Below, piece by piece: positions 780 through 9,404 of a stretch of 28,564 nt of DNA. Under the pieces are notes generated by a model. It was given only the letters and a program-made list of their open reading frames with translations, was not told the DNA's origin and made no database searches. The stretch is taken from IMG/VR virus record IMGVR_UViG_3300047316_000084, positions 1 through 28,564 of that record. One strand, 5' to 3'. The DNA comes from a virus. The stretch's first letter is position 1, and each line of letters opens with the position of its first letter. A program made the translations under genes and the position numbers.

Positions 780-3674
780 GTGCAGACCATCGAATTCCTG
801 ACAGCGATCCTGCCGGGCGACTGCTGGTACTTCGTCGCCACGCCTACTCCGGGCGGCAAGGGCTTCGCTCACACCGCCTGCCGCACGCTGGAGGAGATGG
901 CGCACCGCATCGCCTTCCTCGAAAGCAACACGGCCGACAACATCTACTACGCGTGCTCCGGGTATCGCGAGGAGTACGTGGACCGGCCCAAGGAGTCCAA
1001 GGGCGAGATGAAGCTCGTGCGCTCCTACCGCATCAAGGAGAATGTTAAGCTCGTCAAATCATTCTGGCTCGATCTGGACGTAGGCGAGATCGAGCCCGGC
1101 AAGGCTGCGAAGTACCCGGATCAAAAGGCCGCGCTCATGGCGCTCAATCAGTTCCTGATCCAGACCGGCCTGCCCCGGCCGGTGGTCGTGTCGTCTGGCT
1201 ACGGCATACACGTCTACTGGCCGCTCACCTCCGCGGTGCTGCCGGGTCAGTGGAAGGCGACAGCCGTACAGTTGAAGGAGCTAACGAACGGCCTGCACAT
1301 GCTCACCGATCCCTCGCGGACCGCGGATGAAGCCAGCGTGCTCCGGCCGGTCGGCACCTCGAACCGGAAGATCAAGAACGGAGTCGCGGCCTCGTCGCCC
1401 GTCCGCACTCTCCTGCCGCTCGCCGGTCAGGCTGTGACGCTGATCGACCCGCTCGTATTCCATGGCACCATCCTCTCTGCGCTCAAGGCTAACAAGCTCG
1501 ACGCGGTGGACACCGACAAGAGCGACACGCTGAAGGTGAACCCGTCCGACATGATCGTGCCGGTCGGCGGTTACCAGAAGGTGTCGGCGATCAAGGTCGC
1601 GGACCGCTGCCAGCAGATCAAGTTGTTCAAGGAGACCGGCGGCATCAGCGAGCCCCATTGGTACCGCGCGCTCCAGATCATGCCGCATACCATCGAGGGC
1701 GAGAAGCTGGCCCACGAATGGAGCAAGGTGCACGCCGGGTATTCTCCGGACCAGACGGACCAGAAGCTCGCGCAGGTCCGCGACATGGGCCCGACGCTGT
1801 GCGCCACGTTCGCGAGCACGAACCCGGACGGTTGCAAGAACTGCCCGTTCGCCGGGAAGATCACCACGCCGCTCCAGCTTGGCACCGTACTGGAGGAGGC
1901 ACCCGCGCCGAAGATCAAGCAGGTCGTCGATGGCGCTGAGACCGAGATCACCCTGCCGAATCCCCCGCATCCGTTTAAACGCGGAAGCGCTGACCAGTCC
2001 GGGCTTTACATCGAAATCGATCAGGGCGTGCCAGTGCGCTTCTACCCTTACGATCTGTACCCGTATGAGATCATTAACGACGCGGGGAAGAATGAGGGAT
2101 CGGTCGGCGTGCGCCACTGGTTGCCCAAAGAGGACTGGAAGCAGTTCACCATTCCGCTCCAGCACTTCGAATCGCAGCGCGATTTTCTCGGGCGCATGCG
2201 CAACAACTTCGTGAACCCCGAGAACGGCAAATACATGGTGGCCTATATGGACGCGTACCTCCGGCAGCTTCAGGACCAGACGAAGATCAAGCAGCTTCAC
2301 ACCAAGATGGGCTGGCTTCCCGAGCCCCAACAGTTCCTCCTTGGCACGAAGCTCTACACGCCCAAGGGCACCTATCCGGCGGGAGTTAGCGCGACTGTCA
2401 GCACGAAGATCGTCAACAGCTTCCACGCCCGCGGCGCGCATGCGGACTGGCAGGACGCGATCCGCAAGTTCGACCGCGTGGGTCTGGAGGCCCATCTGTT
2501 CAGCATTCTGATCGGCTTCGGCGCTCCGCTGTTTAAACTTACCGGACACGGCGGGATCATTGCCTCGATGCTGGGCGAGACCAACGCGGGGAAGACCCTG
2601 TGCGCACGCGCGATGGCGTCGATCTACGGCAGCTTCGACCCGTTCAAGGCTGGGAAGAACGACACCTTCAACGCACGCATCGAGCGCATGGGGATGCTCT
2701 CCAACCTGCCGGTCTACCTCGACGAGACCACGAACATCCCCGCCGAGGACGTGAGCGAGTTGATGTACCAGATCAGTCAGGGCGTCGGGCGCACGCGCCT
2801 GCGCTCCGACTCGACCGTCCGCGAGGCGGCGGAGTGGAGCACCATCGTCCTCACCTCCGGCAACCGCAGCATGGTCGGTCGCCTGATGGAAGCCAAGGTC
2901 GATCCCGAGGCCGAGCTTGTCCGGCTGTTCGAGTACACGGTGCGCAAACACTCGTGGTTCGAGGCCGAGATGTCGGGCATCTACGACGTGCTCGACGCCA
3001 ACTACGGCACAGCCGGAGAGAAGTACATCAAGTACCTCGTGCAGCTTAGCGAGTCCGATATGAAGCAAGGTCTGCGCAAGCTATCCGACGACTTCGCCCA
3101 GCAGGTCGGCTTCGAGGGCAAGGAGCGTTTCTGGTACGCGCTCGTCGCGGCCGTGCTCTACGGTCTCTGGTGCGCGGACGCATCGGGCGCGCTAAAGCTG
3201 GAAGACACGAACGCCACCTATCAGCGACTCTGGACGTGGGCCCGCGAGCAAATCGCCCATCAGCGGGGCGTGGTCACCGATAGCAAGCTCGGCGCGGTCG
3301 AAGCTCTGTCCCTGTTCCTCAACGCGCACCTCGCAGATCGGCTGGTGATCATGGAGAACAGCGGCATCGTGGCGGTCGTGAAGCAGCCCGCGGCGCATGG
3401 TAAGCTCGGCATCGAATACAACCAGTCCACAGGGATACTCGCGGTCAGTCAGTCCCTCATGCGCAACTGGCTCAACAAGAACCAGCTTAACCCGCACCAG
3501 ATCAAGCAGGACCTGATGAAAGACGGGATCATGGTCCGGGGCGACATCGAGCACAAGATCACACTCGGGCGCGGCACCCAGTTCCAAGGGGGCCAGACGC
3601 GGGTCTGGAAGTTCGACGCGAAGAACCCGGCGCTGGGCGGCGCAGTGGAGCTACTCACCAAGGAGGGAGAATGA
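780..3674 (+). CDS. Primase-helicase fusion (AEP-like primase plus DUF927-like helicase)
   Basis: A 964-aa replication protein. The N-terminal third looks like an archaeo-eukaryotic-type primase: the acidic pair LDLD (D98, D100), then SSGYGIHVYW (138-147, His144), then LRPVGTSN (188-195). A three-cysteine segment follows (C341, C352, C355; GCKNCPF), possibly zinc-binding. The C-terminal half matches the DUF927 helicase pattern: Walker A GETNAGKT (599-606), Walker B VYLDE (D648, E649) and a polar TSGN motif (692-695) like sensor 1. It would unwind DNA and lay down primers at the phage replication fork. The start is a GTG with a weak ribosome site 10 bases after the HTH stop, so translational coupling is likely. 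The stop overlaps the Nudix start as ATGA. Domain assignment rests on motifs only. Confidence 0.88.
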   Translation: MQTIEFLTAILPGDCWYFVATPTPGGKGFAHTACRTLEEMAHRIAFLESNTADNIYYACSGYREEYVDRPKESKGEMKLVRSYRIKENVKLVKSFWLDLDVGEIEPGKAAKYPDQKAALMALNQFLIQTGLPRPVVVSSGYGIHVYWPLTSAVLPGQWKATAVQLKELTNGLHMLTDPSRTADEASVLRPVGTSNRKIKNGVAASSPVRTLLPLAGQAVTLIDPLVFHGTILSALKANKLDAVDTDKSDTLKVNPSDMIVPVGGYQKVSAIKVADRCQQIKLFKETGGISEPHWYRALQIMPHTIEGEKLAHEWSKVHAGYSPDQTDQKLAQVRDMGPTLCATFASTNPDGCKNCPFAGKITTPLQLGTVLEEAPAPKIKQVVDGAETEITLPNPPHPFKRGSADQSGLYIEIDQGVPVRFYPYDLYPYEIINDAGKNEGSVGVRHWLPKEDWKQFTIPLQHFESQRDFLGRMRNNFVNPENGKYMVAYMDAYLRQLQDQTKIKQLHTKMGWLPEPQQFLLGTKLYTPKGTYPAGVSATVSTKIVNSFHARGAHADWQDAIRKFDRVGLEAHLFSILIGFGAPLFKLTGHGGIIASMLGETNAGKTLCARAMASIYGSFDPFKAGKNDTFNARIERMGMLSNLPVYLDETTNIPAEDVSELMYQISQGVGRTRLRSDSTVREAAEWSTIVLTSGNRSMVGRLMEAKVDPEAELVRLFEYTVRKHSWFEAEMSGIYDVLDANYGTAGEKYIKYLVQLSESDMKQGLRKLSDDFAQQVGFEGKERFWYALVAAVLYGLWCADASGALKLEDTNATYQRLWTWAREQIAHQRGVVTDSKLGAVEALSLFLNAHLADRLVIMENSGIVAVVKQPAAHGKLGIEYNQSTGILAVSQSLMRNWLNKNQLNPHQIKQDLMKDGIMVRGDIEHKITLGRGTQFQGGQTRVWKFDAKNPALGGAVELLTKEGE

Positions 3675-4186: not shown

Positions 4187-4204
4187 GCGCTAGGAGTACA
4201 GCGC
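4187..4204 (+). other. Short stem-loop between the Nudix gene and its terminator
   Basis: GCGCT (4187-4191) can pair with AGCGC (4200-4204) around an 8-base loop AGGAGTAC. It lies directly before the terminator stem. No coding sequence follows the Shine-Dalgarno-like loop. It could be an mRNA-stabilising element or chance. Confidence 0.3.
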
Positions 4205-4205
4205 G

Positions 4206-4254
4206 ACCGGCAGGCCGCTCCCCCTCCCCCTGAGTCGCCTGCCGGTTCTTTTTT
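4206..4254 (+). terminator. Rho-independent terminator after the Nudix gene
   Basis: A 10-bp stem, ACCGGCAGGC (4206-4215) with GCCTGCCGGT (4237-4246), has a pyrimidine-rich 21-base loop and is followed by TCTTTTTTA. It closes the HTH / primase-helicase / Nudix unit and insulates it from the tRNA operon. Confidence 0.9.
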
Positions 4255-4257
4255 ATC

Positions 4258-4286
4258 TTGACGGGGATGAGGGCATCAGGTAAGAT
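4258..4286 (+). promoter_or_regulatory. Sigma-70-like promoter of the tRNA operon
   Basis: TTGACG (4258-4263) and TAAGAT (4281-4286) are separated by exactly 17 bases. The -35 matches TTGACA at five of six positions and the -10 keeps the key T, A and final AT of TATAAT. The predicted start site, about 4292-4294, falls directly before the 5' end of tRNA-His. It lies just after the upstream terminator, as expected for an independent operon read by host RNA polymerase. Confidence 0.75.
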
Positions 4287-4294
4287 GCTCGTTC

Positions 4295-4371
4295 GGTGGC
4301 GACGCTAGTGTAGTGGCAGCAAGGCGCGCTGTGAACGCGCAAGCGAGGGTTCGATTCCCCGCGTCACCCCA
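4295..4371 (+). tRNA. tRNA-His (anticodon GTG), divergent
   Basis: The anticodon arm is clean: 5-bp stem GCGCG/CGCGC around CTGTGAA, anticodon GTG. The acceptor pairs GGTGGCG (4295-4301) with CGTCACC, including one G-U pair, and an encoded CCA follows (4369-4371). A 5' extra G opposite a C discriminator is the hallmark of tRNA-His. The T-loop TTCGATT is standard. Odd points: the 3' side of the T stem is one base short, so only GGG/CCC pairs cleanly, and the D stem is weak. It would read CAC and CAU codons if functional. Confidence 0.8.
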
Positions 4372-4377
4372 CAGTCT

Positions 4378-4513
4378 CATTAAGCAGGTGCCCTAGCTCG
4401 AACTGGTGTGGCCTACCCCATCGGGGAGCCCTTCGAGTCAGGATACCAGCCGCGCGGCCCAGTCCTTCGGCGAGAGACAGCCAATGGGTTTGCGGTAGGG
4501 CACCGGCTTAATG
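4378..4513 (+). ncRNA. Unclassified structured RNA between tRNA-His and tRNA-Ala
   Basis: The 141-base spacer between the two tRNAs is closed by a long helix: CATTAAGC (4378-4385) and GGTGCCCTA (4387-4395) pair with TAGGGCACC (4496-4504) and GCTTAATG (4506-4513), giving 17 pairs with a single A-G mismatch. Inside are CTCGAA/TTCGAG (4397-4402 with 4432-4437), CCCC/GGGG (4416-4419 with 4423-4426) and a GCC/GGC hairpin at 4449-4458. CTGGT (4403-4407) could pair with ACCAG (4445-4449), which would make a pseudoknot. No open frame of protein-like character fills it. It is not a recognisable tRNA, tmRNA, RNase P RNA or hammerhead. It could be a regulatory RNA or a processing element for the tRNA precursor; the helix's last base is also the first base of tRNA-Ala. 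Confidence 0.55.
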
Positions 4514-4588
4514 GGGATGTAGCTCAGTTGGGAGAGCGGCTGCTTTGCAAGCAGCGGGTCGCAGGTTCGATCCCTGTCATCTCCACCA
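4513..4588 (+). tRNA. tRNA-Ala (anticodon TGC)
   Basis: This is a full cloverleaf. The acceptor GGGGATG pairs with CATCTCC and contains the G3-U70 wobble that is the main identity element for alanyl-tRNA synthetase. The D arm GCTC...GAGC, the anticodon stem GCTGC/GCAGC around TTTGCAA (anticodon 4546-4548) and the T arm GCAGG/CCTGT all pair. A73 and CCA (4586-4588) are encoded. It lies 5 bases from tRNA-Thr. Confidence 0.97.
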
Positions 4589-4593
4589 GATTC

Positions 4594-4670
4594 GCTCGCG
4601 TAGCTCAGTCGGCAGAGCAGCCGCCTTGTAAGCGGCAGGTCGCAGGTTCGATTCCGTGCCGTGAGCACCA
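4594..4670 (+). tRNA. tRNA-Thr (anticodon TGT)
   Basis: The acceptor GCTCGCG pairs with CGTGAGC (one G-U). The D arm GCTC/GAGC is standard, and the anticodon stem GCCGC/GCGGC surrounds CTTGTAA with anticodon TGT (4627-4629). A73 and CCA are encoded. The 3' side of the T stem has six bases instead of five, so one G bulges out (CC-G-TGC against GCAGG). This may reduce function or be tolerated. A GTTTAAAC octamer begins at the base after the CCA. Confidence 0.92.
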
Positions 4671-4691
4671 GTTTAAACGAAAGGGGGTGCG

Positions 4692-4844
4692 ATGAGCGCG
4701 AAACGAACGGAAGACAAGAAAGACCCGCGGTACCCGTGGACGGCCCGGCAGCGCCGTCAGAAGCTGGGCGGACGCCCGGCGCGCAAGAAGTCCCGCAAGT
4801 CCGGTGAACGCCGGGTGTTCAAAACCGCACCACGGCGTAGATAA
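4692..4844 (+). CDS. 50-aa strongly basic small protein
   Basis: ATG at 4692, stop TAA at 4842-4844, 50 codons. An AGGGGG ribosome site (4682-4687) stands at good spacing. About 21 of 50 residues are Lys or Arg and only four are acidic, giving a net charge near +17. It has one Trp (16) and KK-x-RKS, RRQK and terminal PRRR clusters. It lies at the end of the tRNA operon, 21 bases after tRNA-Thr, and is followed directly by the convergent terminator. The charge suggests nucleic-acid or ribosome binding (inference). I do not recognise the family, but start, ribosome site and placement make it a credible gene. Confidence 0.65.
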   Translation: MSAKRTEDKKDPRYPWTARQRRQKLGGRPARKKSRKSGERRVFKTAPRRR

Positions 4845-7708: not shown

Positions 7709-8794
7709 CTATTGCCACGTCGGCGCAACGCCGGGGCCGTTGGAGGTAAGTACCTGTCCAGCGAGACCCGGATCATGGTTGATCTGAAGGGTACCGGCGG
7801 CAGGGATATTGAAGTTAATGTGTCCTGCAACACCCGCACCAGACGCTTGTCCAGCCTCAAACTCTACGATTCCCCCATCGTGATCCCCAGTACCTTGCCC
7901 GGCGGAAGCTGTAAAGAATACTCCCCCACCATTGCCCTCGTTAGGAACACCGGCGATGAACTCGATGGACCCAGCATTTCCTGTGTTCCCGGGGATTCCT
8001 GTAGCAAACGAAATGGACCCCGAATCTCCATCTCCCACAATGTCCCTTGTGCTAATCTGGACTCCACCGCCTATCACCATAGAAGCGATAGCAGCATCCA
8101 CCAGCCCCAATTCACCGGTTACGGGATCGAAAGTGAATCCGGAGTTGCTGGTCGTCCCTCCACCAGTGCCGAACAAAATCTCTGTAGCCGGAGCCGAGCC
8201 CGCACCAACTGTGGTCCACGTCGGCGCAGCGCCGGGGCCGTTCGAAGTCAGGACTCGACCTGCAATACCGGCATCGCTGTTGATCCGCATCTCACCACTA
8301 AGGGTGATCACGAGATTGCCGGGTGTGGTCCCCACGCCGGGAGCGATGCTTACATCGCCGCCTTGACCGGGTATCGCAGAACCCGCGTGGATAACACCGC
8401 CCTCCGCCGCGCCCGAATCGGGACCTCGTAACCTCGCGACACCGCCTTGAGCCGAAACGATATCGATAATCCCACCAGCGGTGACAAGTGTAGTACCGTT
8501 AAGGGTCAATGTCTGGGTATTAGGATCATAGGTAAAACCGGAGTCGCTCGTCACGCCGGTTCCGGTGCCGAATACAACTTGAGCTAGAGGCTGTGATCCT
8601 CCGCCCCCGCCGCCTTGCGAATCCTGCCACGTCGGCGAACTATCCGGACCGGTCGAGGTAAGCACTTGGCTCGCCGTGCCGGTGCCAAAGGCCGTGCGAT
8701 CTTTGGTGAAGACGAGAAGCGAGTCGAGCAGCTTCTTTACCTCCACGTCTATGAAGGACGCGGCAATATCGGAATGGGTGATAGGTTGGGTCAT
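7709..8794 (-). CDS. Tail-fibre-like protein with three VLTSxGPxxxPTW repeats
   Basis: The 361-aa protein starts MTQPITHSDIAASF. It contains three copies of a motif with the core VLTS-x-GP...PTW, near residues 43-56, 181-194 and at the very end. Two copies of a FGTG...SGFT(Y/F)DP unit lie between, along with Gly-rich beta-repeat segments and a GGGGGS-like linker near residue 60. Such repeats are typical of trimeric tail fibres and collar/adhesin stalks. The third PTW copy is the C-terminus itself; in many fibres this motif is followed by a further domain, so this one may be truncated or a short stalk. Ribosome site AAGGAG precedes the ATG. It probably acts at the virion surface in receptor contact. 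Confidence 0.75.
   Translation of the reverse strand: MTQPITHSDIAASFIDVEVKKLLDSLLVFTKDRTAFGTGTASQVLTSTGPDSSPTWQDSQGGGGGGSQPLAQVVFGTGTGVTSDSGFTYDPNTQTLTLNGTTLVTAGGIIDIVSAQGGVARLRGPDSGAAEGGVIHAGSAIPGQGGDVSIAPGVGTTPGNLVITLSGEMRINSDAGIAGRVLTSNGPGAAPTWTTVGAGSAPATEILFGTGGGTTSNSGFTFDPVTGELGLVDAAIASMVIGGGVQISTRDIVGDGDSGSISFATGIPGNTGNAGSIEFIAGVPNEGNGGGVFFTASAGQGTGDHDGGIVEFEAGQASGAGVAGHINFNIPAAGTLQINHDPGLAGQVLTSNGPGVAPTWQ
7715..8670. repeat. Three dispersed direct repeats of about 45 bp inside the fibre gene
   Basis: Copies at about 7715-7759, 8216-8260 and 8627-8670 share the core CCACGTCGGCG, a CCGG-rich middle and then GGTCGAGGTAAG-like or GTTGGAGGTAAG-like sequence. They encode the VLTSxGPxxxPTW motif. 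Copies one and two are nearly identical for about 25 bases. They are possible sites of homologous recombination between fibre genes. Confidence 0.8.
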
Positions 8795-8804
8795 GTTGTT
8801 CTCC

Positions 8805-9404
8805 TTAGCGAGTCACGGCCGAATCGAGGGTGATCACGCCTTGGAGGAGTCGTGTCACGACCCCATTGCTATCGGTAAGGTCCAGATCGTAGACCGCCGT
8901 TGTGAAAGTGAAAGCCGCTGTCACAGTGTCCGCGATAACAATCTGCACGGTACCCTTGGTGCCGCCGAGCACGATCCCGCCGTTCGCTTCTGTAAGAGTC
9001 ACGAGGATGGTGGATGAATTGATGTCCGGGCGAATCTGCATGCGAGCGGTATAATTCGTCAGATCGACGGGCGGATAGTAGAGCACTTCGCCGCCGGAGA
9101 TGTACGCCGCATAGCGTGTCGTGTCCTGCTGCAAGCGCAGCGTGTTGGCATCGACGAAGTACGCGAGTCGCGCCTTGCTGCTAACCGTTAGGTCACGCGA
9201 GCGGTTGTTGATCTGCGCCATGCCCACCACGCCGACGACGTACACCGGCCAGTCGATCTGAAGTCCGTGCGTCGCGACCGTGATCACCGCCTGTCCAGCC
9301 TTGGTGATGTTGGTGAGCGGCTTGGAGATAAGTACCGCCTGCGGGTACCGAATCACCGGATTAAACGTCGATCCCTGTTCGATAGTGAAGTCTTGATTGT
9401 CCAT
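8805..9404 (-). CDS. Beta-rich structural protein, fibre or baseplate accessory
   Basis: The 199-aa protein begins MDNQDFTIEQGSTFNPVIRY, has a middle domain (about 35-105) with a GLQIDWPVYVVGV segment, then a second beta domain with DLTNYTARMQIRPDI and a YDLDLTDSNGVVTRLL ending. The EQG-TF ... NYTARMQIR ... VYDLEL-like signature occurs in phage structural genes beside fibres and resembles the N-terminal Ig-like domain of upper-baseplate proteins; this is a resemblance, not proof. The region at about 35-105 looks like an insert between two halves of that fold. The start codon shares one base with the giant gene's stop (TAATG), so the two are translationally coupled. The fibre gene follows 10 bases later. 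Confidence 0.7.
   Translation of the reverse strand: MDNQDFTIEQGSTFNPVIRYPQAVLISKPLTNITKAGQAVITVATHGLQIDWPVYVVGVVGMAQINNRSRDLTVSSKARLAYFVDANTLRLQQDTTRYAAYISGGEVLYYPPVDLTNYTARMQIRPDINSSTILVTLTEANGGIVLGGTKGTVQIVIADTVTAAFTFTTAVYDLDLTDSNGVVTRLLQGVITLDSAVTR

What the first reader, a model, noticed from the sequence alone, without database searches (positions are those of the whole stretch)
4378..4513. Structured RNA of unknown class between phage tRNAs, closed by an 18-position helix
The spacer between tRNA-His and tRNA-Ala is closed by 17 base pairs with one A-G mismatch (4378-4395 with 4496-4513), and the interior offers three more hairpins and a possible pseudoknot (4403-4407 with 4445-4449). 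A random 141-base spacer would not be expected to close on itself this way. It starts within 7 bases of one tRNA end and ends on the first base of the next. Either it is a distinct RNA, or it is a processing stem comparable to the helices that flank rRNA precursors.
Basis: partly seen in the sequence, partly recalled or inferred. Interest (0 to 1): 0.65.

Follow-up and report, generated by a model that had tools for sequence, protein, structure and literature searches.

The report
Helix-closed RNA between phage tRNA genes
Between two phage tRNA genes the spacer RNA closes on itself through a conserved 18-position stem, and the same design, a stem that begins in the tail of the preceding tRNA and encloses an exchangeable RNA, recurs in the tRNA arrays of many unrelated uncultured phages; what the enclosed RNA does is not known.

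Summary
The helix is real and exact: 17 Watson-Crick pairs plus one A.G mismatch (4378-4395 with 4496-4513). None of 4,000 dinucleotide shuffles came near it, and it is the best of 5,684 equal stretches of the window. The extra hairpins and pseudoknot proposed inside are at chance level. The three related phages with a tRNA array close a matching spacer with compensatory changes; there the stem starts in the CCA tail of tRNA-Pro, a gene the window lacks.

The design is widespread. A 3'-arm motif from unrelated phages hits at least 120 stretches of the viral collection; 98 of 102 testable copies pair with an upstream arm (shuffled: 10 of 1,020), mostly in large tRNA arrays. Helices start at the tRNA discriminator base in 105 of 801 spacers, against 2-3 at control offsets. 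Interiors form at least 14 recurring families; one 13-member family has covarying internal stems and strongly covarying arms. Rfam has none, and no cultured phage checked has the CCA-anchored form.

Best reading (mechanism inferred): a tRNA-array cassette whose terminal stem isolates the spacer, so tRNA maturation cuts out a small stem-protected RNA, comparable to T4 RNAC/RNAD. A pure processing stem is the main rival.

The parts
4258..4286 (+). sigma-70-like promoter (TTGACG - 17 nt - TAAGAT) just upstream of tRNA-His
   Evidence: consensus scan, 2 found in the region against 0.2 expected; function not tested
4298..4370 (+). tRNA-His (GTG), CCA encoded
   Evidence: ARAGORN; Rfam tRNA 38.2 bits
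4371..4377 (+). 7-nt linker; 4375-4377 can also pair with 4514-4516, in competition with the tRNA-Ala acceptor stem
   Evidence: sequence; pair probabilities
4378..4395 (+). 5' arm of the closing helix (A4386 mismatched with G4505)
   Evidence: exact pairing and statistics; covariation with relatives
4396..4495 (+). enclosed interior, 100 nt; no sequence or structure conservation detected
   Evidence: z +0.58 for 4397-4495; no similarity to other interiors; no Rfam match
4496..4513 (+). 3' arm of the closing helix; 4513 is also nucleotide 1 of tRNA-Ala
4513..4588 (+). tRNA-Ala (TGC)
   Evidence: ARAGORN; Rfam 68 bits
4594..4670 (+). tRNA-Thr (TGT)
   Evidence: ARAGORN; Rfam 60.5 bits

Best explanation
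The spacer is a tRNA-array cassette: a terminal stem encloses an exchangeable interior and keeps it folded apart from its tRNA neighbours. Shown here: the stem exists, is far beyond chance, and is kept by compensatory changes in relatives; in the relatives its 5' arm starts in the CCA tail of the upstream tRNA and its 3' arm ends in the first bases of the downstream tRNA; the same architecture recurs with many different interiors in unrelated phage arrays. Inferred: the transcript is cut by the ordinary tRNA-maturation enzymes (RNase P at the 5' end of tRNA-Ala, 3'-end processing behind the CCA of the upstream tRNA), which releases the spacer as a small RNA of about 115-140 nt whose ends are protected by the stem. 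Its task is unknown; the window copy looks like a derivative that kept the stem after tRNA-Pro was lost or replaced.
For: Helix statistics. The related loci were found through a neighbouring protein, not through pairing, and all three that carry a tRNA array close a matching spacer: in L002/L003/window 94.7% of cells pair, 7 pairs have changes on both sides, 0/500 shuffles reach this, and slid registers drop to 28-52%; with L010, 92.6% paired and 9 pairs with changes on both sides. The helix coexists with the tRNA-Ala acceptor stem. General architecture: helices at the discriminator base in 105/801 spacers against 2-3/801 at +20 and +25; motif copies 98/102 paired against 10/1020 shuffled; a sample chosen only by a tRNA-Ala pattern has 9/76 closed spacers against 0/228 shuffled. 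G.U exceeds A.C 72 to 27 under symmetric scoring, so the pairing is kept at RNA level on the tRNA sense strand. Interiors recur as families; one family found by interior sequence alone has flanking arms that pair though they differ in sequence and internal stems that covary. T4 has two stable RNAs beside tRNA-Arg in its tRNA cluster, detected by Northern blot, function unknown (PMC9697503).
Against: No expression data for any of these phages. In the window clade the interior is not alignable and folds no better than shuffles, so a functional released RNA is not shown there. Elements as short as 41-47 nt exist, little more than the stem itself, so the interior is dispensable in some cases. The window copy is not anchored in a CCA tail.
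Confidence: 0.5

Rival explanations
1. Pure processing or insulating stem. The helix is the working part: a double-stranded site (for RNase III, for instance) or a clamp that brings the 3' end of one tRNA next to the 5' end of the next, and the interior is passive filler.
For: In the window clade only the stem is conserved, not the interior. Minimal hairpins of 41-47 nt occur at the same place. Stem length of 17-24 bp is in the range of RNase III substrates (established knowledge, not tested here). Offset test shows a fixed start at the tRNA tail.
Against: Many interiors outside the window clade are conserved across contigs and upstream tRNAs, one with covarying internal stems, which filler would not be. 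No RNase III cut site could be tested.
Confidence: 0.3
2. Mobile palindromic element: short terminal inverted repeats with variable cargo that inserts behind tRNA tails, selected at DNA level.
For: Identical or near-identical interiors sit behind different tRNAs with different arms, for example 27 nt shared behind Glu, Pro and Lys; tandem copies occur without a tRNA called between them.
Against: G.U:A.C asymmetry of 72:27 points to RNA-level pairing on the tRNA strand. The window arms are not repeated elsewhere in the window. The motif is at chance level in bacterial genomes, with no helix in 24 testable hits. No target duplication or empty site was seen (not searched systematically).
Confidence: 0.12
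3. Degenerate tRNA gene: the spacer is a decayed tRNA whose acceptor region has been extended.
For: 14 of 195 elements contain a T-arm-like hairpin, against 1 of 3,900 shuffles.
Against: 181 of 195 have none, and the window interior gives no tRNA match. The arms are 17-24 bp, not 7. No tRNA-Pro remnant was found in the spacer itself.
Confidence: 0.05
4. Chance complementarity.
For: None beyond the G+C-rich composition.
Against: 0 of 4,000 shuffles; best of 5,684 windows; compensatory changes in relatives.
Confidence: 0.01

Closest known systems
T4 RNAC and RNAD (species 1 and species 2 RNA)
   Same: Small RNAs of 139 and 119 nt inside a phage tRNA cluster, RNAD starting 1 nt from tRNA-Arg; RNAC contains a T-arm-like hairpin, as some elements of the wider class do; function unknown (PMC9697503).
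   Different: T4 has no long closing helix anchored in a tRNA tail; no sequence relation was found; T4 RNAs are shown by Northern blot, ours are not.
GOLLD and ROOL RNAs
   Same: Structured phage RNAs of unknown function often encoded near tRNA islands (PMC12286853).
   Different: Hundreds of nucleotides long; Rfam models, which include them per PMC12286853, did not match here.
rRNA and tRNA precursor processing stems (RNase III type)
   Same: A long helix formed by sequences on both sides of an RNA segment in a polycistronic stable-RNA transcript (established knowledge).
   Different: Here the helix encloses the spacer rather than the mature RNA; cleavage not tested.
Closed Asn-Lys spacer of Alishewanella phages Slicko01 and Slickus01
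   Same: A 104-nt spacer closed by a 15-position helix 3 nt behind tRNA-Asn; a cultured phage with the general form.
   Different: Not anchored in the CCA tail; sequence unrelated to the window.
E. coli rtT RNA of the tyrT operon
   Same: RNA released from a tRNA operon, with a basic micro-protein in the operon (from memory, a lead only).
   Different: Rfam holds it as a family and gave no match here.

Membership tests
Any Rfam 15 family | score at or above the family's gathering threshold | tested here: not met
   Only the three tRNAs match in the window; permissive search of 4200-4720 gives nothing for the spacer above chance; L231 and L201 elements also unmatched
T4 RNAC/RNAD-like stable RNA in a phage tRNA cluster | encoded between or beside tRNA genes of a phage array | tested here: met
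   window; T4
T4 RNAC/RNAD-like stable RNA in a phage tRNA cluster | accumulates as a discrete stable RNA | not testable with these tools
   no expression data for this uncultured phage
T4 RNAC/RNAD-like stable RNA in a phage tRNA cluster | sequence or structural homology to RNAC or RNAD | tested here: not met
   no match of the spacer in the phage collection; folds differ
CCA-anchored closing-helix elements (class described here) | helix of 17 or more positions closing an inter-tRNA spacer | tested here: met
   class
CCA-anchored closing-helix elements (class described here) | 5' arm starts in the discriminator-CCA tail of the upstream tRNA | tested here: not met
   window helix starts 7 nt behind tRNA-His; met in its relatives L002, L003, L010
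CCA-anchored closing-helix elements (class described here) | 3' arm ends at the 5' end of the next tRNA | tested here: met
   4513 is nucleotide 1 of tRNA-Ala
RNase III processing stem | cleaved by RNase III within the helix | not testable with these tools
   needs in vitro cleavage or an rnc mutant
tRNA or tmRNA (degenerate copy) | cloverleaf or T-arm in the spacer | tested here: not met
   ARAGORN and Rfam, both strands

The most novel reading that the evidence does not exclude
Phage tRNA arrays carry a large, undescribed class of small structured RNAs with one common chassis: a 17-24 bp terminal stem that begins by pairing the discriminator-CCA tail of the preceding tRNA and ends at the next tRNA, around exchangeable interiors of many families. 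tRNA maturation would release them, and the window holds a copy that survived the loss of its tRNA-Pro anchor.
Probability: 0.45. Interest if true: 0.85.

Novelty: new variant of a known kind. Interest (0 to 1): 0.7.

Why it matters
Two RNAs in the T4 tRNA cluster are still listed as of unknown function (PMC9697503). If the architecture seen here is a general cassette, such RNAs are not a T4 oddity but a common feature of phage tRNA arrays, with dozens of families to compare, a recognisable boundary signal (the tRNA tail paired in a helix), and a testable route of release. That would make the question of what phage tRNA arrays carry besides tRNAs directly testable, and would give annotators a way to find these RNAs.

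Tried and rejected
Interior hairpins and pseudoknot: chance level. Known RNA families: none. Antisense or reverse-strand tRNA: none. Direct similarity of the spacer in the phage collection: only 19-nt chance matches. Relatives through the Nudix protein or the minus-strand protein: none new. Bacterial genomes with the DUF927-like protein: none; with the 3'-arm motif: 25 hits, about the number I estimate by chance, and no helix in 24 testable ones. Window interior against all other interiors: no similarity. Cultured tRNA-rich phages for the CCA-anchored form: none among nine checked. Element interiors in the phage collection: no match. MAFFT shifted the register of arm-only alignments (A5, A8), so the four-sequence window counts and the family arm counts were made ungapped in Python, with the register chosen by me. 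A first attempt to force the tRNA-Ala acceptor stem was one base out of register and was redone. In one search one item meant as a family control (L043) did not cover that element and is not used. Literature: searches found no description of such stems, but only open-access papers are held.

Full report
1. The observation. The window is a 28,564-bp virus record. tRNA-His (4298-4370), tRNA-Ala (4513-4588) and tRNA-Thr (4594-4670) lie in a row. With the same freedom of start and end, 4,000 dinucleotide shuffles reach at most 11.5 against 17.5, and no other of 5,684 windows of the record matches it. The helix has pair probabilities near 1 in the context of the whole tRNA transcript, and only its outermost pairs compete with the tRNA-Ala acceptor stem. 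The interior is another matter: it folds no better than shuffles (z +0.58) and the suggested pseudoknot pairing has probability 0.03.

2. Relatives. A DUF927-like protein upstream of the array (780-3671) finds L002 and L003 at 73% identity and L010 at 40%. These were chosen by protein, not by RNA. In L002 and L003 the order is His, Pro, element, Ala; in L010 it is Pro, element, His, Ala. All three spacers are closed: CCATTTCG-T-AGGCGCACCA / TGGTGCGCCT-T-CGAAATGG in L002, the same outer part with an inner TGTG/CACA in L003, and CCATTAG-A-GTG-G-GCTCT / AGAGC-A-CAC-C-CTAATGG in L010. On window, L002 and L003, 94.7% of cells pair, 7 of 19 pairs have changes on both sides, no shuffle of 500 does as well, and slid registers drop to 28-52%. 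With L010 added, 92.6% pair and 9 pairs have changes on both sides. In the relatives the 5' arm starts in the CCA tail of tRNA-Pro; the window has no tRNA-Pro and its helix starts 7 nt behind tRNA-His. The simplest reading is that the window lost, or had replaced, the tRNA and kept the stem (inference). The interiors of the four cannot be aligned as wholes, though L002 and L003 share two short motifs in the same order (and inspection of the sequences).

3. A wider class. The 5' arm begins at the discriminator base and CCA of the upstream tRNA; the 3' arm often ends with the first GG of the next tRNA. In that sample, which was not chosen for any stem, 9 of 76 spacers of 40-300 nt are closed, against 0 of 228 shuffled. 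Of 102 testable copies 98 pair with an upstream arm that was not part of the pattern; shuffled upstream sequence gives 10 of 1,020. A similar pattern in bacterial genomes gives 25 hits (I estimate about 30 by chance), and none of 24 testable ones has such a helix. Over 801 spacers, helices of score 12 or more start at the discriminator base in 105 cases and at +20 or +25 in 2 and 3. The 801 include loci fetched by the 3'-arm pattern, so 105 is not a frequency; the comparison with control offsets is the test. With a score that treats G.U and A.C alike, G.U outnumber A.C 72 to 27 outside positions 1, 9 and 17, as expected for pairing at RNA level on the tRNA strand. Among 13 records tested, 6 carry a T4-type Gp23 capsid gene, including a 400-kb one; the window clade shows none and is a separate lineage, so the design crosses lineages or arose more than once.

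4. Interiors. Total lengths run from 41 to about 270 nt. Interiors fall into at least 14 clusters of three or more members across contigs and upstream tRNAs. For ten clusters I took the interior alone, found further copies by sequence and then looked at their flanks: most pair, many with different sequences and some without a CCA; a minority of hits give weak or no pairing in the fixed flank window used. In the largest clean family, 13 sequences give five stems with 97% of cells paired and 12 of 21 pairs with changes on both sides, 0 of 500 shuffles as high. Its arms pair at 98.4% with all 16 pairs showing changes on both sides; arms of different members pair at 52% on average (the register was set by hand). 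Fourteen of 195 elements hold a T-arm-like hairpin. No family is in Rfam.

5. How it may work. What is shown is a selected RNA stem, bounded by tRNA ends, around an exchangeable interior. What is inferred is the rest: that tRNA maturation at the two boundaries frees the spacer, and that the stem protects its ends and keeps it from misfolding with the tRNAs. T4 gives a precedent: RNAC and RNAD lie beside tRNA-Arg in the T4 cluster, are seen on Northern blots as late RNAs and have no known function (PMC9697503). The main rival is a stem that serves processing alone; the non-conserved window interior and the 41-47-nt hairpins speak for it, the conserved interiors elsewhere against it. A mobile palindromic element is possible, since the same interior appears behind different tRNAs, but the RNA-level asymmetry and the absence of the arms elsewhere in the window speak against it.

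6. Known or new. No Rfam family and no paper found describes the stem; the literature search covered open-access papers only. GOLLD and ROOL are other phage RNAs near tRNA islands (PMC12286853), far larger. Nine tRNA-rich cultured phages have no CCA-anchored helix; one, Alishewanella phage Slicko01, has a closed spacer without the anchor, which makes it a usable test system. I rate it a new variant of a known kind, structured RNA in a phage tRNA array. By the strict CCA-anchor criterion the window copy itself fails, while its relatives meet it.

7. Limits. There is no expression evidence. The window clade has only four sequences. Several counts rest on thresholds and registers chosen here. The class was met by following one lead in one collection, so its true spread is not measured.

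Noticed in passing
window 4692-4844; L003 about 9699; L002 about 10454: A basic micro-protein (MSAKRTEDKKDPRYPWTARQRRQKLGGRPARKKSRKSGERRVFKTAPRRR) directly behind the tRNAs; relatives carry a similar one inside their tRNA array (VSFKRTADKQRPDWPWTARQRRTKAGGR...), sharing PWTARQRR-K-GGR.
   Followed up: partly
L003 about 8043; L002 about 8148: A 17-18-residue basic ORF (MSKAGKRPRPKP...) between tRNA-His and tRNA-Pro whose end runs into the start of tRNA-Pro.
   Followed up: no
window about 4210-4255; also L002, L003, L010, L011, L015: Terminator-like hairpin upstream of the tRNA genes with a conserved C-rich loop (CTCCCCCTCCCCCTG) followed by CCGGTTCTTTTT, kept in all these relatives. The loop resembles an anti-Shine-Dalgarno sequence.
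   Followed up: no
L002 about 8640-9020: An ORF that looks like a small HNH-type endonuclease sits where L003 has tRNA-Gly; tRNA-Gly-like sequence continues behind it.
   Followed up: no
L303 5371-5474 (OQ508956); L318 (OQ508957): Cultured Alishewanella phages with a 104-nt tRNA-Asn to tRNA-Lys spacer closed by a 15-position helix, z -2.5; nearly identical in both phages.
   Followed up: partly
L059, minus strand, upstream of tRNA-Ala: A 248-nt span closed by an A+T-rich helix of score 21.5 next to a tRNA-Ala; not classified.
   Followed up: no
L055, L036, L043 and L152-L231: In the A+T-rich elements helix position 9 is often an A.C mismatch and position 17 mostly a U.G wobble; both may be recognition or anti-cleavage features.
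   Followed up: partly
L213, L211, L216: Tandem copies of the element between tRNAs; copies without a tRNA in front often show ACTA or ATCA in place of ACCA.
   Followed up: no
MN988472 and relatives (Rhizobium phages RHph_TM): The homologue of the window's DUF927-like protein is annotated there as a putative integrase, which looks like a misannotation.
   Followed up: no
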